From Armatimonadota bacterium (GTDB lineage: Bacteria; Armatimonadota; Fervidibacteria; Fervidibacterales; Thermosaccharophagaceae), in assembly GCA_025062195.1 (NCBI GenBank), contig JANXAS010000010.1:42749-75206 (forward strand): a stretch of 32,458 nt of DNA. The letters are read 5' to 3'. The first letter of the stretch is position 1. Each line of letters starts with the position of its first letter. A program made the position numbers and the translations under genes. Shown one piece after another: positions 2,768 through 18,454 of the stretch. The notes under the pieces were generated by a model. It had not been told where the DNA came from, did no database searches, and worked only from the letters and a program-made list of their open reading frames with translations.

Positions 2768-3376
2768 TCATTTATAACCCATCCAATCCGTCTGAAATAG
2801 CTTTATGCAGTTCAGGTCGTAATTATCAAGCTCCGAGACGAATTTCCTGTGTGGCTCAGCAAGCTTTGGCTCGCTCAAGTTTTCGTAAATCTTCACCAAC
2901 AGATAACGGTAGAAAGCATTTCTCGGGCGCAGCTTTGCGGCTCTCTCCATCACCTCTGCAGCTTTCCTTAGCTTGCCGAGCCGGACGCATACAGCTGCAA
3001 ATCGCACATGATAGTAATCATCAAGTGGCGCACAAAGCAACGCTGCCTCAAACTGCATTGCAGCCTCCTCAAGACGCTGCATCTTGAGGTAAAGCTCGCC
3101 AAGCTCAAAGTGGTAGAAGGCATCGTCAGGGGCAAGCTCACACGCATGCTCAAGATGTTTGATGGCTGACTTATAATCACCGCATGAGTAGAGTGCCTTT
3201 GCGATTAAATGGAAAAACCATGCCCGCTCTCTTTGGGTGTGCTTTTCACTACGGCGCATAATGGCACAGTCATGAGCGTGGCAAACACTTTCACTTTTAT
3301 CGGTAACAACTATTGCTCCACCGTGAACTACCTTAGACTCTCCACTCTCACCCTTTCCTTTCCTTCTGCCCTTCAT
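2768..3376 (-). CDS. TPR-repeat protein of unknown role
   Basis: The 202-residue product has about three tetratricopeptide repeats at roughly 51-84, 85-118 and 119-152, carrying the usual pattern (AIKHLEHACELAPDD, EAAMQFEAALLCAPLDD, KAAEVMERAAKLRPRN). TPR arrays are protein-binding scaffolds; the partner cannot be told from sequence. The N-terminus is basic (MKGRRKGKGE) and contains CHAHDC at 32-37, a possible metal ligand set. There is no signal peptide or membrane segment, so it is probably cytoplasmic. I chose the ATG at 3376 because GGGTGAT precedes it by about four bases. A start at 3442 would add 22 residues and has its GAGGT box too close to the ATG. It faces away from hisG across a 283-bp gap and lies upstream of pilB on the same strand, but nothing links it to pilus function beyond position. 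Confidence 0.8.
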   Translation of the reverse strand: MKGRRKGKGESGESKVVHGGAIVVTDKSESVCHAHDCAIMRRSEKHTQRERAWFFHLIAKALYSCGDYKSAIKHLEHACELAPDDAFYHFELGELYLKMQRLEEAAMQFEAALLCAPLDDYYHVRFAAVCVRLGKLRKAAEVMERAAKLRPRNAFYRYLLVKIYENLSEPKLAEPHRKFVSELDNYDLNCIKLFQTDWMGYK

Positions 3377-3659
3377 TGGTATCACCCATCGGAGCATAAT
3401 GACATAACCATATTTTAGATGCCCATGCGATAGAGTTCGCATGACCTCATCTGCAATGATACCACATGCCCGTCAACATCGTCAATGCTTAAGCACAAAC
3501 CGATCAACAAATGAGGTTCATACTAACTGCACACATAGCAAGACGAGTTCGTGTGACATAATTGCATGTGATTTTTGTTACTCCGACTCGATATTGCACA
3601 TGACCTTAACAAGACCAGCTTTTCACCCTCTAAGGGCATGAAGCAAGAGGTGAATAAAT

Positions 3660-4532
3660 GTGCGGCAATTAAAATTTGGTCTGCCAAAGGGGAGCTTACA
3701 GGATGCTACGCTGCAACTATTTAAGATGGCTGGATGGAATGTGCATATTCAACCTCGCTCTCACTTCCCAACAATTGACGACCCGGAGATAAGAGCCATC
3801 TTGCTTAGAGCGCAGGAGATACCACGCTATGTCCACGATGGCATTTTGGATGGTGGCATAACTGGATACGACCAAATTGTTGAAAATGAAGCTGATGTGG
3901 TTGAGGTTGCCGATTTAGTTTACTCAAAGCAAGGTCTGGGTAAAGTGCGCCTTGTCATAGCCGTTCACAATGACTCACCGTATCAGCGAGTCGAGGATTT
4001 GGAAGGGAAACGCATCGCCACCGAACTCCCAAACACAGTCCGAAGGTTCCTTCAAGAGAGGGGAGTAAACGCTCATGTTGAATACTCTTGGGGTTCAACG
4101 GAAGCAAAGGTGCCAGAACTTGTTGATGCCATTGCCGACTTAACGGAGACAGGCACAACGCTGTCTGCAAACAACCTGCGCATCGTTGAGACTATACTTG
4201 AATCAAACGCTAAGTTGATAGCAAGTAAAGCTGCTTGGGCTAATGAATGGAAGCGCTCAAAGCTTGAACAAATTGCGCTTATGCTTAAGGGCGCCCTTAT
4301 GGCTCAACAGAAAGTTGGGATTAAGCTCAATGTCGCTGAGGAGAATTTGCGGGATGTCATTGCGCTTCTTCCGGCTATGCGCCAACCAACTATATCCCCA
4401 CTTGCTGAACAGGGTTGGTATGCCGTTGAAGCTGTGGTAGATGAACGCATAGTTAGGGAGTTAATTCCGAAGCTAAAGGCAGTTGGCGCATGCGACATCA
4501 TTGAATATCAACTTAACAAAGTCGTGCCATAA
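3660..4532 (+). CDS. hisG: ATP phosphoribosyltransferase, long form (HisG)
   Basis: HisG catalyses the first step of histidine synthesis: ATP plus PRPP gives phosphoribosyl-ATP. At 290 residues this is the long form, with a C-terminal ACT-like regulatory domain (about 215-290) that binds histidine for feedback inhibition, so no HisZ partner should be needed. The N-terminus carries the family motif GLPKGSLQDATLQLF, then DGGITGYDQI. The PRPP-binding loop is TETGTTLSANNLR (about 161-173). The GTG start at 3660 is preceded by AAGAGGTGA at a spacing of about seven. An ATG two bases earlier is out of frame. No other his gene is adjacent, so the histidine genes are at least partly scattered in this genome. 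Assignment is secure. Confidence 0.96.
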   Translation: MRQLKFGLPKGSLQDATLQLFKMAGWNVHIQPRSHFPTIDDPEIRAILLRAQEIPRYVHDGILDGGITGYDQIVENEADVVEVADLVYSKQGLGKVRLVIAVHNDSPYQRVEDLEGKRIATELPNTVRRFLQERGVNAHVEYSWGSTEAKVPELVDAIADLTETGTTLSANNLRIVETILESNAKLIASKAAWANEWKRSKLEQIALMLKGALMAQQKVGIKLNVAEENLRDVIALLPAMRQPTISPLAEQGWYAVEAVVDERIVRELIPKLKAVGACDIIEYQLNKVVP

Positions 4533-4837
4533 TCAGATGGGCATTGCCTTTGGCGATCACATTCGTCACACAAACCGATTGAAAAAATTCGGCGAGCGAC
4601 ACTTCCCTATGCCACACCCTTAGCACGACAAAAAGCACGCCCCAGACGAGACCATTCTCAAAAATAGAGGTTGTGCAGTTGGCATTGTTTTTTCGGGTGC
4701 ACACGATAGCCCATCACAAAAGCACCAAACGCCCTCTCCCAATAGAAGCTGCACAATTGATGCTGCATTGTAGGGACAGACGACGATCCGCCTGAAAAAT
4801 TAATGCTGCAAACGGCACGAATGATACAGGTAGGAAA

Positions 4838-4847
4838 GGCTTTAGCC
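4838..4847. repeat. GGCTTTAGCC intergenic palindrome
   Basis: The ten-base near-palindrome GGCTTTAGCC also occurs, in either orientation, at 646-655 and 17701-17710, each time outside genes. Its small size makes chance possible, but all three copies being intergenic suggests the core of a dispersed repeat. Confidence 0.4.
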
Positions 4848-4880
4848 ACGCCAAAATTGGCTTCTCTTTTTACTACAAAC

Positions 4881-4954
4881 TTGGTCAGGTTCGTGGTTAG
4901 CTGCCATCCATCCACCCTAATCGCTCTAATCTCTTTGTGGCGGACTACGAACTA
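4881..4954. repeat. Inverted pair of GGTTCG-type repeats
   Basis: The plus-strand segment 4881-4905 (TTGGTCAGGTTCGTGGTTAG, then CTGCC) resembles the repeat at 14313-14344. Segment 4931-4954 read on the minus strand (TAGTTCGTAGTCCGCCAC, then AAAGAG) resembles the copy at 14420-14450. The two arms face each other across about 25 bp, as they do in the 14.3-kb pair. Similarity is partial (about three quarters of positions by eye). Confidence 0.4.
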
Positions 4955-5116
4955 CCTCATCGATACCTATGCTGCATTGATTTTATGAGATCGCACACCC
5001 TCCTTCATAAATTTCACAGGGCAAATCCATTGCCCACCATTCATCTTTGGCATGCCTGAAGTTATTCCCTCAAACGAGGCTGCCTTCCCTTTGTGAAAAA
5101 ATCGCATTGACCCAAA

Positions 5117-5332
5117 TTAGCGCCTGCCCCTGTGATCATTGTAAAATGCTTTGGTATGCACACCCTTGTTGTTACATTCACGGCACAGCAATACTGAGTT
5201 TGGGACTGGTGTTCCCGGGAGCATCGTCTTTATCGGGCGTCCGCACATGCCGCATCTCGGACGCTGAAGAGGACGCTCCTCCTTGCGAATAAGTTGACCA
5301 TTTGGACCGAACACAAACAAGTTGGTGAACAT
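5117..5332 (-). CDS. Small putative zinc-ribbon protein
   Basis: This 71-residue protein has two CxxC pairs: C27-x-x-C30 (CGMCGRPI) and C50-x-x-C53 (CREC). The 19-residue spacing is typical of a treble-clef or zinc-ribbon knuckle. The start ATG at 5332 has AGGGGGAG about seven bases upstream, and the Arg/Lys-rich C-terminus (DHRGRR) would suit nucleic-acid binding. I do not recognise a named family. It stands alone in a 1.5-kb gene-poor region between hisG and the nitrilase. The paired Cys motifs, good ribosome binding site and candidate promoter make it more likely a real gene than a chance frame. Function unknown. Confidence 0.65.
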   Translation of the reverse strand: MFTNLFVFGPNGQLIRKEERPLQRPRCGMCGRPIKTMLPGTPVPNSVLLCRECNNKGVHTKAFYNDHRGRR

Positions 5333-5379
5333 GACGCAACTCCCCCTTCAAATTTGCTTGGTTTTTTATCCTGACAGGG

Positions 5380-5408
5380 CGTGTAAACTGGTGAGGGGTG
5401 CATGACAA
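5380..5408 (-). promoter_or_regulatory. Candidate promoter for the small zinc-ribbon gene
   Basis: On the minus strand TTGTCA (5403-5408, five of six consensus -35 bases) is separated by 17 bp from TACACG (5380-5385, three of six -10 bases). It would start a leader of about 40 nt ahead of the ATG at 5332. The -10 match is weak. Confidence 0.3.
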
Positions 5409-5762
5409 ATACCTGCGCAAGCCACCCATCCTGGCAGTGATAAGACAGCCACTTTATCAATCCGCCAACCAACGAAACAAAATAACAGCTCACTTTCAGG
5501 AAATCCTCCTATCGCAGGGACATCTCTGCGGCATTCTATAGCAGGCGCTTCATTTTCCATTATGACACCATTGGCAATGGTTGTAAAAATAGCGACTGCT
5601 TGCAGTCCTCAACCCCTTAGAGGCGCAACTCTTCGCTCAAAAGTGCTTTAGTCATAAGTCATAAATTGGCATCGGCTTAAAGCTTTGAAATGTGGGCAAG
5701 ATGCTGACGCCACTTTAAGCTGGTGAATTCATGATTAAGTGCTTATCCCATCACAGCGACAA

Positions 5763-5817
5763 GATTGTTAGCGAAGGAAGGGTTGTTAGTGGAGGAAAGG
5801 TTGGTTAGTGAAAGGTT
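5763..5817 (+). repeat. Three imperfect 18-bp tandem repeats
   Basis: The units are GATTGTTAGCGAAGGAAG (5763-5780), GGTTGTTAGTGGAGGAAA (5781-5798) and GGTTGGTTAGTGAAAGGTT (5799-5817). They share a GTTAGYG core followed by a purine run, making a strand-asymmetric G/A/T-rich tract. Function is not apparent. Confidence 0.55.
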
Positions 5818-5871
5818 GAAAGGTCCTTAGCCAGGTAGCGTTAGGGTTTGTCCAAGATGGTCCTTAATACC

Positions 5872-5892
5872 CGTCGCCAATAAAGGGCGACG
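5872..5892. other. Perfect 7-bp hairpin
   Basis: CGTCGCC (5872-5878) and GGCGACG (5886-5892) form a perfect stem around a seven-base loop. No T-run follows on either strand, so a simple intrinsic terminator is unlikely. It sits about 190 bp ahead of the nitrilase gene. Confidence 0.45.
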
Positions 5893-6080
5893 CCACTGGT
5901 TTCGTGCTTTAATTAACCATTTCAAAAAGGAAGACGCCACAAAAGGTTAGCATGCCTGTGACACTGCACAGAAAAGCTCCCGGCAAAGAGCAAAAGCATT
6001 TGACCTAAAGTTGTGCTAACATTTGGTTTACGCTGAGCTTCGGCTTGACACCAATGATGAGTGTGGTGGAGGTGTGGAAG

Positions 6081-7028
6081 ATGGCAAGGTATGTTCGTGT
6101 CTCCACAATAACCTTTGGTGGTGCTCATCATGCGGCAGCGGAGTTGAAAGAGATAGTCAAGAGCAATCTGGAGGCGGCAGCAAGACTGTTTGAAAGAGCC
6201 GTCTTGGACAAGCCGGATATAGTAGCGCTCCCTGAAGTGTTTGCCTTCCTTGGTGTGTCCGCAAATCAATGGGAGCAGGTTGCGGAGACAGTTGATGGGC
6301 AAGTGGTTAGCACATTCCGAGAACTCGCAAGGAAGCATAACTGTTGGGTTGTATGCCCATTTGTTGAAAGGGATGATATCGGCATACGAAATTCAGCAGC
6401 CTTCATAGACCGAAATGGTAATGTTGTGGCGAAGTATCATAAGATGCATCCAACGATTGATGAAATAAATGCTGGCGTCATACCCGGAACTGAAGCTGTG
6501 GTTGTTGGGACAGAGTTTGGAAGAATAGGCTGCGCCATATGCTTTGACCTGAACTTTGAGGATGTAATTGAAGGGATGGCACAAAAGGGAGTTGAGCTTG
6601 TTTTCTTCTGCTCAATGTATCTTGGCGGTCTTCAGATGCGCATATGGGCACACGACTATAGTATCTTCATGGCATCGTCATGCACATCCTATGGGAGTAT
6701 GATAGTAGACCCACTTGGAAGGGTGATTGTAACTTCACAACCTTACCAACCTATAATTTCAAGGACAATCAACCTTGATGCCGTCGTGCTGCATCTTGAT
6801 TACAACCACACAAAGTTTGCGGCTATAAAGGAACGCTACGGCGCAGCCATTGAGATAGATGTTTCCTCTCCGGAGGCAAAGTGCGTTCTCATCTCGCATA
6901 TTCCGGATAAGAGAGCAAGTGACATCGTTGCCGAGTTTGAACTTGAACCGCTTCGTAGTTACTTTGAGAGGGCTGAAAAAATACGCAAACAAGCTCTCGC
7001 CAAGCTGAACCACAGGAGAGCACCATAG
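6081..7028 (+). CDS. Carbon-nitrogen hydrolase (nitrilase superfamily amidohydrolase)
   Basis: The enzyme family hydrolyses non-peptide C-N bonds (amides, N-carbamoyl compounds or nitriles) through a Glu-Lys-Cys triad. All three are visible in the 315-residue protein: E52 in ALPEVFAF, K121 in VAKYHKMHP, and C154 in GCAICFDLNFED. Length and order fit the superfamily. The substrate cannot be assigned; the protein resembles general predicted amidohydrolases more than classic nitrilases. I chose the ATG at 6081 because GGAGGTG lies six bases upstream; the first in-frame ATG (6045) has no such site. It is cytoplasmic, with no signal peptide. It has no operon partner: the next gene, a sigma factor, converges on it. 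Confidence 0.88.
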   Translation: MARYVRVSTITFGGAHHAAAELKEIVKSNLEAAARLFERAVLDKPDIVALPEVFAFLGVSANQWEQVAETVDGQVVSTFRELARKHNCWVVCPFVERDDIGIRNSAAFIDRNGNVVAKYHKMHPTIDEINAGVIPGTEAVVVGTEFGRIGCAICFDLNFEDVIEGMAQKGVELVFFCSMYLGGLQMRIWAHDYSIFMASSCTSYGSMIVDPLGRVIVTSQPYQPIISRTINLDAVVLHLDYNHTKFAAIKERYGAAIEIDVSSPEAKCVLISHIPDKRASDIVAEFELEPLRSYFERAEKIRKQALAKLNHRRAP

Positions 7029-7366
7029 CGATCAATGTTCCGCTCATACCGTAAGTTTTCATGAGCATGATAACTATTATTTGACTTGGGGCGAAAGTTG
7101 CTTCCCGATGCTCTCATCCGGAATTTGTGGCAATCACTCCCAGTATGATTAACTTCGGTAACATTAATATTCGCTGATAAATCGTGCGATGCTGCAGTGC
7201 CGAATGTTGGTTTTGTAAGGGCAGATGAAATACGCCCGCAAATTTTTGGTCGGGCAGCGACCTCATCCACAGATACGCCTAAAGATTTTTTAGAAAAGAA
7301 CAAGCTCGGTAACGCGAGAAGAAAAAACAAACGAAGCACCATGCCGCACAAATTGTTAGAAGGTGT
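7029..7366. other. Intergenic region between convergent nitrilase and sigma genes
   Basis: I see no gene. A five-base inverted pair GCCCG/CGGGC (7234-7238 and 7251-7255) is the only structure apart from the hairpin at the sigma-gene end. Confidence 0.45.
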
Positions 7367-7403
7367 CAGTAGGCGACCTGGCAAATCTGCCGCTTGCCTA
7401 CTG
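7367..7403 (-). terminator. Long hairpin overlapping the sigma-gene stop codon
   Basis: CAGTAGGC (7367-7374) and GCCTACTG (7396-7403) form a perfect 8-bp stem. A second stem, GGCA/TGCC (7380-7383 and 7388-7391), nests inside it. The sigma gene's stop codon (7398-7400) lies within the outer arm. Downstream on the minus strand there is only a weak T content (ACACCTTCTAAC), so it may protect the 3' end or terminate inefficiently. Confidence 0.45.
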
Positions 7404-9185
7404 GGGGAACAACATCTTGACCTTGGGATGCTCCCGCAGCTGCTGCAATGCCAATTGGACAAGTTGCATCGCCCTTTGCCTGCTCAAGCCAAGCTGATAA
7501 CCAATTTCATCATAGGTGTGCATAACGCCGTCATCAAGACCAAAGCGCAATTTGAGAGCCTGCTGTGTTCTGTCTGGAAGTTCCCTAATCGCTTCTTCAA
7601 TGACCTGCTTCATCTCACGATTAGCCATAACCTCTTCAGGGTTGTTGGATAAATCATCGGCAAGATACTCGGAGAAGGATGGCACTTCATCAACATCAAG
7701 TCCATCTGCCATGTCCACAGGGTCATCAAGCGAAATCACCTTTTGAGCCATGTAGCCCATAAGCTCTTTCACGCGCTCCTTTGAAAGGCGCACCCGCCTT
7801 GCTATCTCCTCAATTGTTGGGTCACGCCCAAGCTCTCGGATAAGCGCTTGCCTTGCTGCAGCGATCCTATGAACTTGCTCTGAGACTCGCATTGATAAGC
7901 GGACTATTCTGGCGTGCGAGTCAATTGCGCGAAGTATCGCCTGCCTAATCCACATGACAGCACATGTGGAAAACCTTGTCCCTTGGCGCCAATCGTAGTG
8001 GTCAACAGCTTGTATTAAGCCAATGTTGCCAGCCTGTATCAAGTCTTCAAGTGGGACCCCGCAACCACGATACTTTTGAGCAATGCTCACAACGAGGCGA
8101 TAGTTTGACTCAATAAAGATGCGCCTTGCCTCCTCATCGCCTTTCTCCATACGCTTTGCGAGTTCCACCTCTTGTTCATGCGTCAACAGAGGGCGCTTAT
8201 GTAATTCCCGTCCCCACAGAGTCATTGGGTCGGGTATACTGGAGCGCTGCCGCCTTGACGGCTTATAGCTGAGCAAAGTATCAACCGAGCTTACCAACGC
8301 TTCAATGTCTTCCTCAGAGAACAAAACCCCATCCCCACCGATCTTAACCGCAGCCATAGGTTCAGCCTCAAATTCATCTTCATTTTCCGGTTCCAACATC
8401 CACCTGTTATCAGCTTTTACAGGTGCAGCTGGCAGAGATACTTTCGTTCGCTTTAAAGGACTCTTTGATGGTTCCCTTCTAACCCCACTCTTCTCTTCGG
8501 CAAGGCGCACCATCTCAGAAGACTTTGTCAATTTCTTTATCTTCGCGACGGCTTCCTCCTCACCCTTTAAAGTTCTAACCTTTGTCGCCTTTGATGGAAT
8601 CTGTTTGGCTGCCTTCTTTGCGGCTCCCTTTTGCTTATCTTTGCTTGACCCAGACTTAGCCATCGCCACTTTAGTTGATGCTCTCGCCAGCCTCTCCAAC
8701 AAAAGCACTTTAGCCTTAGCTTCAAGAAGTTTCTCCTTTTCCATCACCATGCTTTTTGGGGCGATGGCTCTTGCAGCTGCCACGCTTGATACGCCCTTCT
8801 TTTGAGCGCTGCCGATTGACTTGCCTACCTTTGATGACCCAACCTTAAATGCGCTGCCTCTTGATGTAGCCCCTCTTGATGTGTTGTTGCTTGATGCTGC
8901 GCTCTTTGCCGCTGCAGACTTTGAAAGCCTAATACCCGAAACGACTTTTGCACCTCCACCAGCAGCAGGCTTGTTCAGAACAGCTTTCTTAGGGCTCGTG
9001 CGTGAAGGCTTTGCACAATCAGCCGAGCAGCGAATCCCCTTGCGCACATTTAAAACGATTTTACCGTCAGTCCTCCCACCTGAGGTATTTTGTGCTTTTG
9101 TCACATTAGTGTGACTTGAGCAGACACTGCCAGATGCATTTATCCTTGCCACCTTGGCAGTGCCTCTTGCTTTGCTTCGTGTCAC
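7398..9185 (-). CDS. Sigma-70 family RNA polymerase sigma factor with long basic N-terminal extension
   Basis: The C-terminal ~280 residues are a primary-like sigma factor: region 1.2 (DPMTLWGRELHKRPLLTHEQE, from ~319), region 2 (NYRLVVSIAQKY, DLIQAGNIGLIQAV), region 3 (RDPTIEEIARRV) and region 4 (RTQQALKLRFGLDDG, YDEIGYQLGLSRQR). Ahead of it lie ~315 residues rich in Lys, Ala, Ser and Arg with almost no hydrophobic pattern, replacing a normal region 1.1. Region 2.4 reads FSTCAVMWIRQA where housekeeping factors have FSTYATWWIRQA, so the first Trp of the melting dyad and the Tyr are changed. In the region 4.2 helix, the Glu and second Arg of TRERIRQ become Gln and Met (SRQRAMQ). This suggests an alternative factor with altered promoter choice. 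The GTG at 9185 follows GGAGGTGA; an ATG at 9212 is less well placed. The gene is monocistronic and convergent with the nitrilase gene. Confidence 0.9.
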   Translation of the reverse strand: MTRSKARGTAKVARINASGSVCSSHTNVTKAQNTSGGRTDGKIVLNVRKGIRCSADCAKPSRTSPKKAVLNKPAAGGGAKVVSGIRLSKSAAAKSAASSNNTSRGATSRGSAFKVGSSKVGKSIGSAQKKGVSSVAAARAIAPKSMVMEKEKLLEAKAKVLLLERLARASTKVAMAKSGSSKDKQKGAAKKAAKQIPSKATKVRTLKGEEEAVAKIKKLTKSSEMVRLAEEKSGVRREPSKSPLKRTKVSLPAAPVKADNRWMLEPENEDEFEAEPMAAVKIGGDGVLFSEEDIEALVSSVDTLLSYKPSRRQRSSIPDPMTLWGRELHKRPLLTHEQEVELAKRMEKGDEEARRIFIESNYRLVVSIAQKYRGCGVPLEDLIQAGNIGLIQAVDHYDWRQGTRFSTCAVMWIRQAILRAIDSHARIVRLSMRVSEQVHRIAAARQALIRELGRDPTIEEIARRVRLSKERVKELMGYMAQKVISLDDPVDMADGLDVDEVPSFSEYLADDLSNNPEEVMANREMKQVIEEAIRELPDRTQQALKLRFGLDDGVMHTYDEIGYQLGLSRQRAMQLVQLALQQLREHPKVKMLFPQ

Positions 9186-9310
9186 CTTTTTCACCTCCAA
9201 GGTTAGACCCATCTCAACCGAACAAAAATCTTAAAACCACACACCACCCTCCACTCACATGCCCATCATTCAAGACAACCCCTATCCACCCACCTTAGCT
9301 CACGAACTTG

Positions 9311-9339
9311 GCATACATAGGTCATGATAGCATGTATGC
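9311..9339. promoter_or_regulatory. 8-bp inverted repeat, possible operator upstream of the sigma gene
   Basis: GCATACAT (9311-9318) and ATGTATGC (9332-9339) are perfect inverted arms with a 13-bp spacer, about 126 bp upstream of the sigma-factor start. A dimeric regulator site is possible, with centres about two helical turns apart. No other copy was noticed in the window. Confidence 0.35.
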
Positions 9340-9709
9340 AGCGATTATAGGCATCGCTGCCATCCGCCGTAAAGGTATACAATGGCACCAATCTCTAAGC
9401 TTATACTTCACCTCATCCTGCGACAGACAAACCTGCACTACCATGCTTGATATCGGGATGACTTACCAGATGAGGCTGACGGACAACTACCTTCATTATA
9501 GCTGGATGAATATCCCTCTGTCAACCTATTCGGAGAGCGATACCAGCTAACATGTGCCAACTTCATTAGACGAAGTGGCATTTCAAATGTTTCGCTGAGA
9601 CGCTCATCTTGCGATACACTGGGATAGCGAATGACGAGACATTGCTATACAACACCGTCTGCAACCTCTGCGTCCAAAGTTGCGTTGTGTGCACAATGCA
9701 GTTATAGCA

Positions 9710-9729
9710 GCATGTTGCAAAGAACATGC
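9710..9729 (+). other. 7-bp hairpin upstream of the JAMM gene
   Basis: GCATGTT (9710-9716) and AACATGC (9723-9729) form a perfect stem with a six-base loop, 55 bp ahead of the JAMM start. It could be an mRNA leader hairpin or an operator. No T-run follows. Confidence 0.35.
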
Positions 9730-9784
9730 CAAGCCAACTCTCTCAACATGCTATTAACAAAGCTCACATTGAGGTGGTGCCTGA

Positions 9785-10564
9785 ATGAAATGCAGCAACG
9801 CCGCAGACAAAGAATGCGATAAGGTAGGGGGACAAGTGCTGCTATCCCTGTCGGCATACATGCGCATTAAGGCGCATTCACTACTCACCTACCCGGATGA
9901 GTGCTGTGGGTTGCTCATCGGGCGAAAGGCGGGTGCAACAGTGTGGGAGATAATGAAAGCCTTCCCGACAAGGAATGCTCACAGGGAACGAAAGCGTGAC
10001 AGGTATGAAATTGAGCCTCACACAATACTCACAGCCATGACGGGAGCAAAGATACAAGGGTTAGAGTGGATTGGCGTTTACCATTCACACCCAAATGTGC
10101 CACCCGTCCCCTCTTTAACTGATTCGGAGTTGGCTTGGGAGGGCTTGATTTATTTGATCATGAGTGTATTCAACGGTGGAATGACAGTTGCTCGGGCTTG
10201 GCTATACACTGGCGAGGTAGCAAATGGGCTTACAGATGGCTTTGCTGAACTTAAGATTGCCACACTTGAGGACGCGTTCTTCCATGCAAGCGGACACATG
10301 AATGATTTAGGGGCGGAAGCGCAGATTGACCTAAGGGACGAAGTGTTGCCGTTCAACATCATACGGGCAAAAGAGAAGCTTGAGCAAATGCAGCCCGGGC
10401 AGACACTGAGCATCATCTTTAACTGCGAGCGCTCTTTGAAGCAGCTCGTTGAAGCACTTGAGGACGACGGACATTACGTGCTCTGTCTGCGTTTTCAAGG
10501 TGAGCACCAGTGGGAAGCATTAGTCAAGCGCGGTTATAAGCCCGGCTCAAAAGCGAGGTTTTAA
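9785..10564 (+). CDS. JAMM (Mov34/MPN/PAD-1) metallopeptidase fused to a TusA-like domain
   Basis: Residues ~20-150 are a prokaryotic JAMM domain with the full zinc site: E39 in PDECCGLLIG, H100 and H102 in GVYHSHPNV, then S110 and D113 in SLTDSE. Such enzymes cleave C-terminal extensions or conjugates of ubiquitin-like sulfur carriers (for example Mec+ acting on CysO). Residues ~178-250 look like a TusA/SirA domain: IDLRDEVLPFN, IIRAKEKLEQMQPGQTL and a DDGH turn match its beta-alpha-beta layout. The CPxP motif has become LPFN, with Leu188 replacing the sulfur-carrying Cys, so this domain may bind a partner and not carry sulfur. The ATG at 9785 follows GAGGTGG at a spacing of seven; a GTG at 9836 with AGGGGGA just upstream is an alternative. 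The gene stands alone, divergent from the sigma gene. The JAMM call is firm; the TusA call is by pattern only. Confidence 0.85.
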   Translation: MKCSNAADKECDKVGGQVLLSLSAYMRIKAHSLLTYPDECCGLLIGRKAGATVWEIMKAFPTRNAHRERKRDRYEIEPHTILTAMTGAKIQGLEWIGVYHSHPNVPPVPSLTDSELAWEGLIYLIMSVFNGGMTVARAWLYTGEVANGLTDGFAELKIATLEDAFFHASGHMNDLGAEAQIDLRDEVLPFNIIRAKEKLEQMQPGQTLSIIFNCERSLKQLVEALEDDGHYVLCLRFQGEHQWEALVKRGYKPGSKARF

Positions 10565-10582
10565 TTTGGCTGGTAAGAACGA

Positions 10583-10670
10583 TGGTGCCGACGGCGGGAG
10601 TCGAACCCGCACGGGCTTTTAGCCCACTGGCTCCTGAGGCCAGCGCGTCTGCCATTTCCGCCACGTCGGC
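10583..10670 (-). tRNA. tRNA-Leu (anticodon CAG)
   Basis: The minus-strand sequence folds as a class II tRNA: acceptor GCCGACG/CGTCGGC, anticodon stem CTGGC/GCCAG around the loop CTCAGGA (anticodon CAG), a long variable arm (TGGGCTAAAAGCCCG) and a T-loop GGTTCGACTC. The 3' CCA is encoded. It lies 18 bp past the JAMM stop codon on the opposite strand. Confidence 0.95.
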
Positions 10671-10847
10671 ATTGGTGGAAAGTTATTTCAGGCAATGGTA
10701 TACGGGTTCACACTTCATTATTGCGCGTGAATTTAAGGGTTGTAAACTTTGCAGTTGGAGTGGTTGCTCGGGCAAACGAGAGCATTTAGACAAAGCCCTC
10801 CTCTGCGATTAGCGTTGCTAATCAGCCGAGCTTATGTGGTGAGGCGA

Positions 10848-12122
10848 ATGGGGAGTATTTTAGTTGAGCGTTTGAAGGTGCTCTCAATGGTGCTTTTGGG
10901 GAGCGCTATGTGCGCTTCAGTTGGAGCGCTCAGCGGGGGAGCTTTCGGGATAACAATGTGCGCACTCTCAGCAGCCATGGCATTAGCCACGGCTCTGTTC
11001 CTGTGGTTCTACGGCGAGGTCGTTGAAAAGCGCTTGGAGCGCTTCCAAAGCGAGATAGCGGAGACGAGAACAATCATAGCCGATCTGCGCCAAGAGGTTA
11101 AGGAGCTTGGCGAGTTGACGGTGCAACTTCAAAGGCTGACCGAAGTGCTTAAATCGGTCGCAGCAGCGCCTGATGCCGAGGGGGTGGCTAAGACACTTCT
11201 TGATGAAGTCATTCAAATGTTCGGGGCGGAGACAGGACATGTATTCATGGTATCGGATGATGGACAACACCTTGAAGAAATCGCCTTGCATCCGTATAAT
11301 GCAACTCGCCCCCAGAGAAGATACTTGCTTAAAAGCGACCAAGATAGCATAGTTGCGCGCGTGGCGCTAACCGGAGAGCCATTCATATTGTCTCCGCCTA
11401 CTAATGGAGTTAAGTCAAATGCTACATCGCTCTCGCTTATGTGCGTTCCGTTAACTTCCACAAGAGGGGTCCAGGGCGTCCTTTTGATTGAAGATAAAAG
11501 ACGCAGATTTACTAAATCCGATCTGCGCTCACTTGAGTTGCTCGCACAGCAAGCTGCCATTGCACTTGAACGGGCAAGGCTTTATGAGCAGATGGAAAGG
11601 CTCTCATTGACGGATGCTTTAACTGGAGTTGCAAACAGAAGACATCTTGAAAAGCACCTCAAGATGGAGCTTGCAAGGGCGAGACGATACAACTACCCGC
11701 TCACCGCTATCATGTTGGACATAGACCATTTCAAGAAATTCAACGATGTGCACGGTCACCTGACCGGCGACAGAGTGCTACAGGAGTTGGCGAAGCTGTT
11801 GACTAATGTAGCTCGTGCCTCTGACTTGGTGGGAAGGTATGGTGGTGAGGAATTCCTCATCATATGCGCATACACTGATTTGAACGGTGCCCTCGCGCTG
11901 GCGGAGCGCATAAGGGCAATGGTTGAACAAACAGCGTTTGAATCACATGAGGGTGAAAAGCTTCATATCACAATAAGTGCTGGTGTTGCAGCCTTTCCTG
12001 AGGATGCTCAGGACGAAATGGAATTGATTGAAGCAGCTGACAGAGCACTGTATGAGGCTAAGCAAACTGGGCGCAACAGAGTTTGCGCATACAGGGATGT
12101 GAGCAACCGTCAAAATCAATGA
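10848..12122 (+). CDS. Membrane-anchored GAF-GGDEF diguanylate cyclase
   Basis: The 424-residue protein has two hydrophobic N-terminal segments (about 11-30 and 32-55), a short coiled-coil-like helix (57-105), a GAF sensor domain (about 107-245) and a GGDEF domain (about 250-420). The active site reads GGEEF (332-336). An intact RxxD inhibitory site (RASD, 323-326) lies five residues before it, so product inhibition by c-di-GMP is expected. The protein should make c-di-GMP from two GTP in response to a ligand or redox signal at the GAF domain. I chose the ATG at 10848 because GTGAGG lies a few bases upstream and the membrane segments follow at once. An upstream in-frame ATG (10749) adds 33 residues with no membrane logic. 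It is followed 36 bp later by tatA. c-di-GMP could feed into pilus control here, but that is inference. Confidence 0.93.
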   Translation: MGSILVERLKVLSMVLLGSAMCASVGALSGGAFGITMCALSAAMALATALFLWFYGEVVEKRLERFQSEIAETRTIIADLRQEVKELGELTVQLQRLTEVLKSVAAAPDAEGVAKTLLDEVIQMFGAETGHVFMVSDDGQHLEEIALHPYNATRPQRRYLLKSDQDSIVARVALTGEPFILSPPTNGVKSNATSLSLMCVPLTSTRGVQGVLLIEDKRRRFTKSDLRSLELLAQQAAIALERARLYEQMERLSLTDALTGVANRRHLEKHLKMELARARRYNYPLTAIMLDIDHFKKFNDVHGHLTGDRVLQELAKLLTNVARASDLVGRYGGEEFLIICAYTDLNGALALAERIRAMVEQTAFESHEGEKLHITISAGVAAFPEDAQDEMELIEAADRALYEAKQTGRNRVCAYRDVSNRQNQ

Positions 12123-12158
12123 GCGATTCCAAAGCAACAACATAAGGGGTGAATGGTT

Positions 12159-12365
12159 ATGCCGATCGGCATGACGGAAGCGCTCCTCATTGCCGGTGCT
12201 ATTGTGCTGTTATTTGGCGCCTCACGCCTGCCGCAGGTTATGGGCGCTCTCGGCAAAGGCATAAGGGAATTCAAGAGGGCAGTGCGTGAGGATGACGAGC
12301 CAAAAAAGCAGACCAAAGAGAGAGAAGAGCAGGGAGAGCAAGGTGAGGAACGGCAGGTTGAATAA
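12159..12365 (+). CDS. tatA: Sec-independent translocase subunit TatA/TatE family
   Basis: The 68-residue protein has the TatA plan: a short periplasmic start, one membrane helix (EALLIAGAIVLLFG), the hinge FGASRLPQVMG, an amphipathic helix (GALGKGIREFKRAV) and an acidic, Gln/Glu/Lys-rich tail. TatA subunits oligomerise with TatC to move folded proteins with twin-arginine signals across the membrane. The ATG at 12159 is preferred to the one at 12153 because the AGGGGTGA box ends six bases before it and directly abuts the earlier ATG. No tatC is visible nearby. It lies directly downstream of the diguanylate cyclase and converges with the DUF488 gene, separated by only five bases. TatA versus TatE or TatB cannot be decided with certainty, but the length favours TatA/E. 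Confidence 0.93.
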   Translation: MPIGMTEALLIAGAIVLLFGASRLPQVMGALGKGIREFKRAVREDDEPKKQTKEREEQGEQGEERQVE

Positions 12366-12370
12366 CATCT

Positions 12371-12805
12371 TTATCTTTGTCTCGTTTGACTTAAAGAGCG
12401 ATTCTCATCAATGATGTGGATAACATGCCAGCCACGAGCATGAAGGGCTGCAGCTATGAACCGACGATGGCATTTCCAAGGAAAGCGCTCAGCGCACATC
12501 ACCGCAAGAGGCATTGTCTCAGCTATGCTCTCAAGTTCTCTTATGCCATCCTCAAACTCGTGTGTATTCATGTGAGTTTCGTAACCGCCTCTCCTATAGC
12601 CACCGAGCTTATCGCCGAGCCAAACATACTTGATGCCCGCATCGCTGAGCCATACCTGAATTGCCTCACGATTGAAATGAGGATGCTTTGTGCTCTTCGG
12701 AAAACGGCGCACATCAACGACAACCTTTATGCCGTATGTCATGAGCAGGCTTTTCATTTCCTCTGGCGTCCGAGTGCTGTGCCCAACAGTGTATATGCAG
12801 CGCAT
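12371..12805 (-). CDS. DUF488 family protein
   Basis: The 144-residue protein carries the DUF488 signature set: an N-terminal YTVGHSTRTPEEM, VVVDVRRFPKSTKHPHF, LGDKLGGYRRGGYETHM, and a C-terminal CAERFPWKCHRRFIA with its paired Cys and CHR motif. The family is widespread and has no firmly established biochemical role; the conserved Cys/His/Arg residues suggest a catalytic or nucleotide-related function. The start at 12805 has GGTGAG about six bases upstream. It is single-copy here, converges with tatA and has no operon partner. Family membership is clear; function is unknown. Confidence 0.92.
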   Translation of the reverse strand: MRCIYTVGHSTRTPEEMKSLLMTYGIKVVVDVRRFPKSTKHPHFNREAIQVWLSDAGIKYVWLGDKLGGYRRGGYETHMNTHEFEDGIRELESIAETMPLAVMCAERFPWKCHRRFIAAALHARGWHVIHIIDENRSLSQTRQR

Positions 12806-13144
12806 CCTACACTCACCAGCAATTTAACCCCCATCATGTTGTCCCCTCAAAGTTCATCCCGTTTGGCTCTCAGAAGGCGCGCCTCATAACGCACCGTCAA
12901 TCTCGTTCTTAACGGCTTGGGGAGCTTCCCCATAAATGGACCGCCAACACCGTTTTCAACAGCTTTGAAGTTCACATACAAAAGATTGCGTTTAAGACAG
13001 GGACGCATGGAGCTCGCACGAAGAGAATTTGGCGAACCATTATTCGCCACCACCTCTGCATCACTCGTGATGCTCACACCGCCATGTTTTGAACTCCTCC
13101 ATACAACACATGCTTTGCTACTGCGTTGAGGTGTTGCGCATCAG
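12806..13144. other. Intergenic region with one doubtful open frame
   Basis: The minus strand has a 76-codon open frame (12847-13077) that begins with GTG and ends KRDEL. Its frame stays open upstream to just past the stop of the URO-D gene. Its composition (VENGVGGPFMGKLPKPL, RTRLTVRYEARLL) looks somewhat protein-like, but no ribosome binding site fits the GTG and I recognise no family. It could be a small gene with a misjudged start, a remnant of a larger gene, or chance. Confidence 0.3.
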
Positions 13145-14230
13145 TTAAGCTCGTTTAGATGCCGCGCAAACTTTTCCGGCGAGCTTGAGCAGCTCTTTTG
13201 CCTCCTGCTCCGATGAGCAATGCACCGTGAGCATTAAACCGTTGGGCGAAAGTTCGCTCAACACCCTTTCAACATTCTGCGGTGCAACACCAATTAAAAC
13301 TACACCTTTCCCAGCAGCCTGTATGCGTTTGTAGTATGGGAACCATATCGGGTCATCCACTGGTGGCTTGCCGGCACCCGGCGTCCATTGAATTGCATCC
13401 AGCTCGGGTATGGACAGCAAAAGGTCAAGATGCACAAGTTGCCCAACACCATCCCAATGATAAACCGAATGTTCAAGCCAGCGACATTGCTCCTCCAGAA
13501 ACGGCAGGATGAGTTCCTCAAACTGCCTCGGTGAGACCATATAAGAGAAATCGCATTGTATCGGATACCACGTCCCACCGCTCCAAAGCCCCATCCACGC
13601 GCTGCGCCCGTGCATATGCTTTTGCAGCAACTCGTCAAGCTCGCTATAGTAGCGAAACCAAAGATGGACGATACGCTGCGAAGCCCTTCTCACCTTCATC
13701 GGTTCGGTGACGAAGTCTTCGAGCAAGTTGAGTGTGCCCCTTAGCGAGGCAAGTATATCAGTGACGCCACCAAGATCAGTCATGCCAACAAAGGCTTTGC
13801 CCTTAAAATACTTCGCCGCCTCTTCAGTGAGACTCTTCACAAACTGCCACCATTTGTTCCCTTCACCATACTGCAAACATTCCATGACTTTCCCCCAATC
13901 CATCGGCGTCTCAAACCACACCGTCGTCTCAGCAAACCTTGGTATGGCACCAATGAATGTAGCCATATATCCCGGACCGAGGTTGCACCAAAAATTCGGG
14001 AATGCCTCGCCACCATAAAATGTGCAAGCAAACTCAGCTTCGGCTTTCTCAATCCGAAACGGGATATCAAGCCATTGCTGCTCAATTGATGATGGGGCTT
14101 TCACAGGCTTGTGTGGCATCGGCTTTTCACGCGGAGCTGTTACACATATCACGGGGCGGTCAATAACTTCCTTTTGCCAGAACGCCTCCCAACGCTCCGT
14201 TGCCTTCTCCCAATCCTCCTTGTATAGCAC
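13145..14230 (-). CDS. Uroporphyrinogen decarboxylase-fold (URO-D) family protein
   Basis: The 361-residue protein has the general layout of the URO-D/MtaA-CmuA superfamily: an N-terminal region with WEAFWQKEVIDRPVI, a mid-protein DLGGVTDILASLRGT, a conserved acidic strand near VYHWDGVGQLVHLD, and ELDAIQWTPGAGKPP with a C-terminal TIM-barrel end. True HemE has a Phe-Arg-Gln-Ala-Gly-Arg N-terminal motif that I do not see. This is therefore probably a paralogue acting on another substrate, such as a corrinoid methyltransferase-like reaction, and not haem synthesis. Genes of this class are common in polysaccharide-degrading bacteria without known function. The GTG start at 14230 follows GAGGTGAT at a spacing of about seven. 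It has no partner gene nearby. Confidence 0.8.
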   Translation of the reverse strand: MLYKEDWEKATERWEAFWQKEVIDRPVICVTAPREKPMPHKPVKAPSSIEQQWLDIPFRIEKAEAEFACTFYGGEAFPNFWCNLGPGYMATFIGAIPRFAETTVWFETPMDWGKVMECLQYGEGNKWWQFVKSLTEEAAKYFKGKAFVGMTDLGGVTDILASLRGTLNLLEDFVTEPMKVRRASQRIVHLWFRYYSELDELLQKHMHGRSAWMGLWSGGTWYPIQCDFSYMVSPRQFEELILPFLEEQCRWLEHSVYHWDGVGQLVHLDLLLSIPELDAIQWTPGAGKPPVDDPIWFPYYKRIQAAGKGVVLIGVAPQNVERVLSELSPNGLMLTVHCSSEQEAKELLKLAGKVCAASKRA

Positions 14231-17809: not shown

Positions 17810-17886
17810 GCGCCGTTAGCTCAGCCTGGTAGAGCACCGGACTTTTAATCCGGGGGTCGCAGGTTCGAATCCTGCACGGCGCACCA
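17810..17886 (+). tRNA. tRNA-Lys (anticodon TTT)
   Basis: Acceptor GCGCCGT/ACGGCGC, anticodon stem CCGGA/TCCGG around CTTTTAA, T-arm GCAGG TTCGAAT CCTGC. The 3' CCA is encoded. First gene of a five-tRNA cluster on the plus strand. Confidence 0.96.
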
Positions 17887-17908
17887 CTTGCAATAAGTCA
17901 TAAGTGGT

Positions 17909-17983
17909 GGCCCCGTCGTCTAGGCAGGACAAGGACACCGGTCTTTCAAGCCGGGAACACGGGTTCAAATCCCGTCGGGGCCA
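17909..17983 (+). tRNA. tRNA-Glu (anticodon TTC)
   Basis: Acceptor GGCCCCG/CGGGGCC, anticodon stem CCGGT/GCCGG around CTTTCAA, T-arm ACGGG TTCAAAT CCCGT, discriminator A. No encoded CCA. A second Glu isoacceptor (CTC) is at 14577. Confidence 0.95.
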
Positions 17984-18029
17984 CAAAAAAGGTTATCTTC
18001 TTTGGTCATTGGATTGCTTAATGAGAGTT

Positions 18030-18101
18030 GGGCGGTTAGCTCAGTGGGAGAGCGCCTGCCTTACAAGCAGGAGGACAGAGGTTCAAATCCTCTACCGCCC
18101 A
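18030..18101 (+). tRNA. tRNA-Val (anticodon TAC)
   Basis: Acceptor GGGCGGT/ACCGCCC, anticodon stem CCTGC/GCAGG around CTTACAA, T-arm AGAGG TTCAAAT CCTCT, discriminator A. No encoded CCA. Confidence 0.96.
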
Positions 18102-18119
18102 TATGGGGGGCAATCGCGC

Positions 18120-18125
18120 TATAAT
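18120..18125 (+). promoter_or_regulatory. Candidate -10 box ahead of tRNA-Asp
   Basis: A perfect TATAAT lies 21 bp before the tRNA-Asp 5' end. The -35 position falls at the end of tRNA-Val and is not a good match, so this may be an internal promoter of the cluster or chance. Confidence 0.35.
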
Positions 18126-18146
18126 GGTGAATGGCAAACAATGTAA

Positions 18147-18224
18147 GGGGCCGTGGTGCAGCCCGGTTAGCACGTCGGCCTGTCAAGCCGGAGGTCGCGG
18201 GTTCAAATCCCGTCGGCCCCGCCA
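18147..18224 (+). tRNA. tRNA-Asp (anticodon GTC)
   Basis: Acceptor GGGGCCG/CGGCCCC, anticodon stem TCGGC/GCCGG around CTGTCAA, T-arm GCGGG TTCAAAT CCCGT, discriminator G. The 3' CCA is encoded. Confidence 0.95.
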
Positions 18225-18258
18225 TTCACAGTGACTTTGGTGGTATGAGTTAGCATGT

Positions 18259-18330
18259 GGCCGGATAGCTCAGTGGTAGAGCACCGGACTGAAAATCCGG
18301 GTGTCCCCAGTTCGACTCTGGGTCCGGCCA
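18259..18330 (+). tRNA. tRNA-Phe (anticodon GAA)
   Basis: Acceptor GGCCGGA/TCCGGCC, anticodon stem CCGGA/TCCGG around CTGAAAA, T-arm CCCAG TTCGACT CTGGG, discriminator A. No encoded CCA. Last tRNA of the cluster, 124 bp before galU. Confidence 0.96.
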
Positions 18331-18454
18331 CACAGCATTCCCCATAAGCGCCCCCCAAAGAGCGTGAGACGACATTCTCAACCCCTTTTAGTTTCATGAA
18401 TATGTTGCATCTATTGCGCCAACGCATCTGCAAAAACAGCTGGAGCTGAATGCG

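What the first reader, a model, noticed from the sequence alone, without database searches (positions are those of the whole stretch)
9785..10564. JAMM metallopeptidase fused to a TusA-like domain without its catalytic cysteine
The N-terminal half has an intact JAMM zinc site (E39, H100, H102, D113). The C-terminal ~70 residues follow the TusA pattern, but CPxP is LPFN. JAMM enzymes of the Mec+ type process sulfur-carrier proteins, and TusA relays sulfur, so the fusion links two steps of sulfur transfer. Loss of the Cys suggests the domain now docks a carrier or partner. The gene stands alone, so its partner is likely elsewhere in the genome.
Basis: partly seen in the sequence, partly recalled or inferred. 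Interest (0 to 1): 0.65.

Follow-up and report, generated by a model that had tools for sequence, protein, structure and literature searches.

The report
Peptidase fused to dead sulfur-carrier domain
One bacterial gene joins an intact zinc peptidase of the kind that clips sulfur-carrier proteins to a TusA-type sulfur-relay domain that has lost its working cysteine; it probably helps make cysteine, with the dead domain acting as a docking handle, a new variant of a known kind.

Summary
Window 9785-10564 (+) encodes 259 aa: a Prok-JAB/JAMM domain with an intact zinc site (E39, H100, H102, S110, D113) and a C-terminal TusA-fold domain (Pfam 46-49 bits; modelled fold matches TusA crystal structures). 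CPxP reads LPFN. Two genomes of the same order (Armatimonadota) carry the same fusion, also without the Cys (EPFV, EPFL). JAMM and TusA trees each place the three together (88; 89/89), which suggests one fusion and one Cys loss; all 17 unfused TusA domains compared keep the Cys.

The gene is alone here, but both relatives lie just downstream of a CysM-like cysteine synthase. The window genome's copy of that synthase sits beside an E1-like enzyme in a sulfate-assimilation cluster that holds a sulfite reductase with an intact TusA domain. A SAMP1/MoaD-type carrier lies elsewhere; in all three genomes it is capped after Gly-Gly (IIN, R, NGSTTG), so it needs such a peptidase. A Chloroflexota genome has cysteine synthase, JAMM and TusA as adjacent genes.

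Best reading: a Mec+/QbsD-like peptidase for carrier-based cysteine synthesis, with a pseudo-TusA docking domain. Docking is inferred, not shown. No fusion appeared among listed hits from three other phyla.

The parts
9785..10564 (+). JAMM-TusA fusion gene, 259 aa
9857..10180 (+). Prok-JAB/JAMM metallopeptidase domain, residues 25-132
   Evidence: Pfam PF14464 69.4 bits; PDB sequence relatives 2kcq, 2kks, P. furiosus JAMM1; Foldseek top hits all JAMM
9899..9901 (+). E39, JAMM glutamate
   Evidence: invariant in the three fusions
10082..10090 (+). H100-S101-H102, zinc ligands
   Evidence: invariant in the three fusions
10112..10123 (+). S110...D113, rest of the JAMM motif
   Evidence: invariant in the three fusions
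10322..10528 (+). TusA-fold domain without its Cys, residues 180-248
   Evidence: Pfam PF01206; AlphaFold2 model pLDDT 87; Foldseek to TusA/YeeD
10346..10357 (+). LPFN (residues 188-191) in place of CPxP
   Evidence: alignment of 20 TusA domains
10424..10426 (+). C214, a Cys in the loop after the second strand; present in 2 of 3 fusions; same spacing from the CPxP position (26) as the second Cys of E. coli YeeD
   Evidence: YeeD C13/C39 from PMC11073785

Best explanation
The protein is an active zinc peptidase of the Mec+/QbsD type that works on a ubiquitin-fold sulfur carrier of the SAMP1/MoaD (CysO-like) kind. It removes the residues that cap the carrier's C-terminal Gly-Gly, so that the E1-like enzyme can load sulfur, and/or it releases cysteine from the carrier-cysteine adduct made by the CysM-like synthase. 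The C-terminal domain descends from the TusA that belongs to the same sulfur-assimilation clusters; it has lost its sulfur-carrying Cys but kept the fold, and now serves as a docking module that holds the peptidase at the sulfur-loading machinery (E1, carrier or synthase). Shown here: both domains, intact zinc motif, Cys loss in all three fusions, gene neighbours, capped carriers. Inferred: substrate, reaction and docking.
For: Zinc motif invariant. Fusion directly downstream of a cysteine synthase (best NCBIfam score cysM) in G062 and G061; orthologue of that synthase (67% identity) in the window genome beside a MoeB/ThiF-type E1 in a cluster with AprA, Sat, DsrE and sulfite reductase-TusA. 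Carriers in all three genomes end in residues beyond GG: IIN, R, NGSTTG; window-genome carrier passes the SAMP1 cut-off. Capped carriers need a JAMM protease such as QbsD (PMC6006322); Mec+ frees cysteine from CysO-cysteine (PMC3227635). Chloroflexota genome G596 has cysteine synthase, JAMM and Cys-bearing TusA as consecutive genes. In other members of the phylum JAMM, TusA, E1, carrier and sulfite reductase share clusters; such links were described in 2006 (PMC1779556). Fused domain falls with cluster TusAs and keeps their GEVxPF signature. Fold kept across about 30% identity.
Against: In the window genome the gene is not next to any partner, so its membership of the pathway rests on two relatives about 33% identical. 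No partner of the TusA-like domain is known. The JAMM domain scores best against desampylase (below cut-off), so deconjugation of carrier-modified proteins is not excluded. G061 and G062 have no sulfite reductase-TusA fusion, so the docking target need not be the same in all three. The Cys in YeeD is itself important for binding its partner (PMC11073785), so a Cys-less domain may bind differently.
Confidence: 0.5

Rival explanations
1. The JAMM acts as a desampylase: it removes a SAMP1-like carrier from modified proteins, and the TusA-like domain selects those targets. Cysteine synthesis is not its main task.
For: Best NCBIfam match of the JAMM is desampylase, 77.8 bits; the carrier passes the SAMP1 cut-off; P. 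furiosus JAMM1 with SAMP2 is the top structural match.
Against: Desampylase score is far below its cut-off of 130; gene context in two relatives is a cysteine synthase, not a proteasome or conjugation system.
Confidence: 0.2
2. The TusA-like domain is a structural or dimerising appendage of the JAMM, with no partner of its own.
For: The catalytic Cys is gone in all three; domain sequence diverges fast (branch lengths 0.9-1.6); most JAMMs of the phylum work without it.
Against: TusA signature residues (D182, E186-V187, P189, G205, G229) persist over about 30% identity, as does the predicted fold.
Confidence: 0.17
3. The sulfur-relay function has moved to another thiol: C214, in the loop next to the old CPxP site, carries the persulfide.
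For: C214 is present in the window and G062 proteins and lies 26 residues after the CPxP position, the same spacing as the second functional Cys (C39) of E. coli YeeD (PMC11073785).
Against: Phe in the G061 fusion; TusA chemistry is credited to the CPxP Cys.
Confidence: 0.1

Closest known systems
Mec+ of the CysO-CysM-Mec+ cysteine pathway (Mycobacterium tuberculosis)
   Same: JAMM peptidase linked to a cysteine synthase, an E1-like enzyme and a ubiquitin-fold carrier (here by genome context).
   Different: Mec+ has no TusA-like domain (general knowledge); here the carrier is capped after GG; activity untested.
QbsD / PtmS1 JAMM proteases that uncap sulfur carriers
   Same: Capped carrier tail needs a JAMM protease to expose GG (PMC6006322).
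   Different: Those belong to secondary-metabolite pathways; no TusA domain known there.
Sulfur-assimilation gene clusters of class 4c/4e in Iyer et al. 2006 (PMC1779556)
   Same: ThiS/MoaD-like carrier, E1, JAB, cysteine synthase, and SirA (TusA) as separate genes in one neighbourhood.
   Different: JAB-TusA fusion and Cys loss were not found in the passages of that paper read here.
TusA/YeeD sulfur-relay family, including YeeE-YeeD and sulfite reductase-TusA fusions
   Same: Same fold, Pfam family above cut-off, fused to a partner enzyme.
   Different: Lacks the catalytic Cys that every other TusA compared here keeps.
HvJAMM1/PfJAMM1 desampylases
   Same: JAMM domain relative; SAMP-like carrier in the genome.
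   Different: Score below the desampylase cut-off; bacterial; TusA-like domain added.

Membership tests
JAMM/MPN+ metallopeptidases (Prok-JAB, PF14464) | Profile match over the curated cut-off | tested here: met
   69.4 bits against 25
JAMM/MPN+ metallopeptidases (Prok-JAB, PF14464) | E...HxH...SxxD zinc motif complete | tested here: met
   E39, H100, H102, S110, D113, invariant in three fusions
JAMM/MPN+ metallopeptidases (Prok-JAB, PF14464) | Zinc-dependent peptidase activity | not testable with these tools
   needs purified protein
TusA (PF01206) | Profile match over the cut-off and b-a-b-a-b-b fold | tested here: met
   46-49 bits against 28.6; model and Foldseek
TusA (PF01206) | Catalytic Cys of CPxP, needed for sulfur transfer | tested here: not met
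   L, E, E in the three fusions; C in 17/17 others. Hence TusA-fold, not a TusA sulfurtransferase
Mec+ / CysO-CysM cysteine pathway | Linked to a CysM-type synthase | tested here: met
   adjacent in G061 and G062; orthologue on another contig in the window genome
Mec+ / CysO-CysM cysteine pathway | Carrier and E1 present in the genome | tested here: met
Mec+ / CysO-CysM cysteine pathway | Releases cysteine from a carrier-cysteine adduct | not testable with these tools
   needs an assay
Desampylase (NF041370) | Score over the equivalog cut-off | tested here: not met
   77.8 bits against 130

The most novel reading that the evidence does not exclude
A pseudo-TusA domain, inherited from the clusters' own sulfur-relay TusA and stripped of its Cys, steers a carrier-specific JAMM peptidase to the sulfur-loading complex, so that uncapping, loading and cysteine release are channelled in one assembly. 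It would be a dead sulfurtransferase used as an adaptor.
Probability: 0.35. Interest if true: 0.6.

Novelty: new variant of a known kind. Interest (0 to 1): 0.42.

Why it matters
The fusion ties the carrier-clipping step to the sulfur-relay step of carrier-based cysteine synthesis by a physical link, not only by gene neighbourhood. If the Cys-less TusA domain proves to be an adaptor, it names the surface by which TusA proteins talk to the E1/carrier/JAMM machinery, a contact that is not characterised as far as the papers read here show, and gives a ready-made trapped form for structural work.

Tried and rejected
Chance or frameshift fusion: rejected, same fusion without internal stops in two further genomes. 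Wrong fold: rejected. TusA as a Cys-bearing active domain: rejected. Fusion widespread: not seen among the listed matches of 400 Chloroflexota-type, 396 Nitrospirota-type and 396 Acidobacteriota-type genomes searched with profile A1 (phylum names inferred from the locus that seeded each search; lists in 43 and 56 are cut, and in large genomes only some candidates were scored). A single-sequence scan of genome contigs found nothing; the alignment scan returned 22 loci, one of them a fusion, the G061 record itself (JANXBO010000077, Armatimonadetes bacterium SKYB36). Matches with stops in G507 and G575 were not adjacent TusA genes. Foldseek on the full model showed only JAMM hits, so the C-terminal domain was modelled apart. 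The paper on Wolinella protein-thiocarboxylate methionine synthesis is not held. The first attempt to hand in this report was incomplete.

Full report
Observation. The ORF at 9785-10564 (+) is 259 aa. Pfam finds Prok-JAB at residues 25-132 with 69.4 bits and TusA at 180-248 with 46.1 bits, both above their curated cut-offs. The closest solved sequences are JAMM proteins 2kcq and 2kks and the TusA-family protein 1jdq. The JAMM residues E39, H100, H102, S110 and D113 are intact. The TusA CPxP motif reads LPFN.

Fold. AlphaFold2 on the three-fusion alignment gives pLDDT 73.9, with a C-terminal b-a-b-a-b-b order. The C-terminal domain alone, with 20 aligned TusA domains, gives pLDDT 87.1, and Foldseek places it with YeeD (8k1r, rmsd 1.1) and E. 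coli TusA (3lvj_C, rmsd 1.5, TMq 0.80). The alignment fed to the model contains TusA sequences, so the model is not blind to the family; the single-sequence Pfam match is the independent evidence.

Relatives. A search of 291 genomes of the phylum found the full fusion in two more genomes, both of the same order: G062 (36% identity, residues 24-248) and G061 (33%, 17-248). The other JAMM proteins of the phylum that were read end near residue 140-150 of the query. G061 is the public record Armatimonadetes bacterium SKYB36 (same contig number and length), so the phylum is Armatimonadota. Two other genomes of that family lack a match but are only 61-63% complete. The zinc motif is invariant in all three fusions. 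The CPxP Cys is L, E and E in the fusions and C in all 17 other TusA domains; the Pro after it is kept in all 20.

Origin. With the Cys column left out, the three fused domains form one group (89/89, not starred), inside the set of TusAs from sulfur-assimilation clusters and apart from the TusAs next to FAD oxidoreductase genes. The JAMM domains of the three also group together (88, quick tree), next to JAMMs that lie in clusters with carrier and E1 genes. One fusion and one loss of the Cys is the simplest account; the supports are moderate and one fused row is a long branch. The fused domains keep the GEV-x-PF signature of the cluster TusAs (for example DLTGEVCPMTF against DLTGEVEPFVT).

Context. 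In the window the gene is alone. In G062 and G061 it follows a cysteine synthase gene directly. That synthase scores best against cysM (388 bits, cut-off 394). Its closest copy in the window genome, 67% identical, lies at contig C122, next to a MoeB/ThiF-type E1 without a rhodanese domain. The same contig continues with adenylylsulfate reductase alpha (735 bits, over cut-off), a ferredoxin-type protein, sulfate adenylyltransferase, a DsrE-family protein and a sulfite reductase with an intact C-terminal TusA domain (CPIN). G062's E1 has a C-terminal extension with a rhodanese-like CRxxxR stretch. That an E1 lacks the rhodanese where a SirA/TusA protein is present was noted in 2006 (PMC1779556).

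Carrier. The window genome has a ThiS/MoaD-family protein at C83 that passes the SAMP1 cut-off (63.6 against 60) and ends ...AIAGG-IIN. The matching carriers end GG-R in G062 and GG-NGSTTG in G061; four carriers next to JAMM genes in other families of the phylum are capped too (GPACG, N, TRGPAPI, RAVDTTWR), and one in G212 is not. Capped carriers need a protease such as QbsD to expose the Gly-Gly (PMC6006322). Mec+ frees cysteine from CysO-cysteine (PMC3227635). Both reactions fit a JAMM of this kind.

Separate-gene counterpart. In G596 (searched as Chloroflexota) cysteine synthase, JAMM (141 aa) and a Cys-bearing TusA (81 aa, 15 bp after the JAMM) are consecutive, followed by a capped carrier and an E1. 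This is the same gene order as the fusion, unfused.

Mechanism. Most likely the JAMM half trims the carrier and/or frees cysteine, and the TusA-fold half docks. The first is well supported by motif and context, the second is inference from a kept fold without the reactive residue. A twist against simple docking is that in YeeD the CPxP Cys itself matters for binding (PMC11073785). A second Cys, C214, at the spacing of YeeD's second Cys, leaves room for a moved thiol in two of the three proteins.

Spread. No fusion was seen among the listed matches of 400, 396 and 396 genomes of three other phyla, with the limits stated under Tried and rejected. No paper found in nine library searches describes a JAMM-TusA fusion; the library holds open-licence papers only, so novelty is provisional.

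Verdict. A real, clade-restricted fusion; new variant of a known kind; interest 0.42.

Noticed in passing
window 7398-9212 (-): Sigma-70-type factor (604 aa) with an N-terminal extension of roughly 280 residues rich in Lys, Ala and Ser, histone-H1-like in make-up.
   Followed up: no
L075 (G000:C122) 3286-13399: Assimilation-type cluster built on AprA-like adenylylsulfate reductase, with E1, cysteine synthase and a sulfite reductase-TusA fusion.
   Followed up: partly
L004, L005, L006, L008, L051, L052, L053: SAMP1/MoaD-type carriers of Armatimonadota are capped by 1-8 residues after Gly-Gly in 7 of 8 cases read; JAMM gene adjacent in several.
   Followed up: partly
L039:8333-8836 (-); L086:6473-7044 (+): Carrier fused to a NIL domain in G282, and carrier next to a NIL-domain gene in G061 and G062; NIL proteins are tied to homocysteine synthesis in PMC5764234, so the carriers may also serve methionine.
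   Followed up: partly
L130:2750-7014 (+): Cysteine synthase, JAMM, TusA, a further protein, capped carrier and E1-rhodanese-like gene in a row: unfused form of the fusion's context.
   Followed up: yes
window 12371-12805 (-): Short ORF of DUF488-like appearance (recalled by eye, not searched).
   Followed up: no
window 17810-18331 (+): Run of five tRNA genes (Lys, Glu, Val, Asp, Phe).
   Followed up: no
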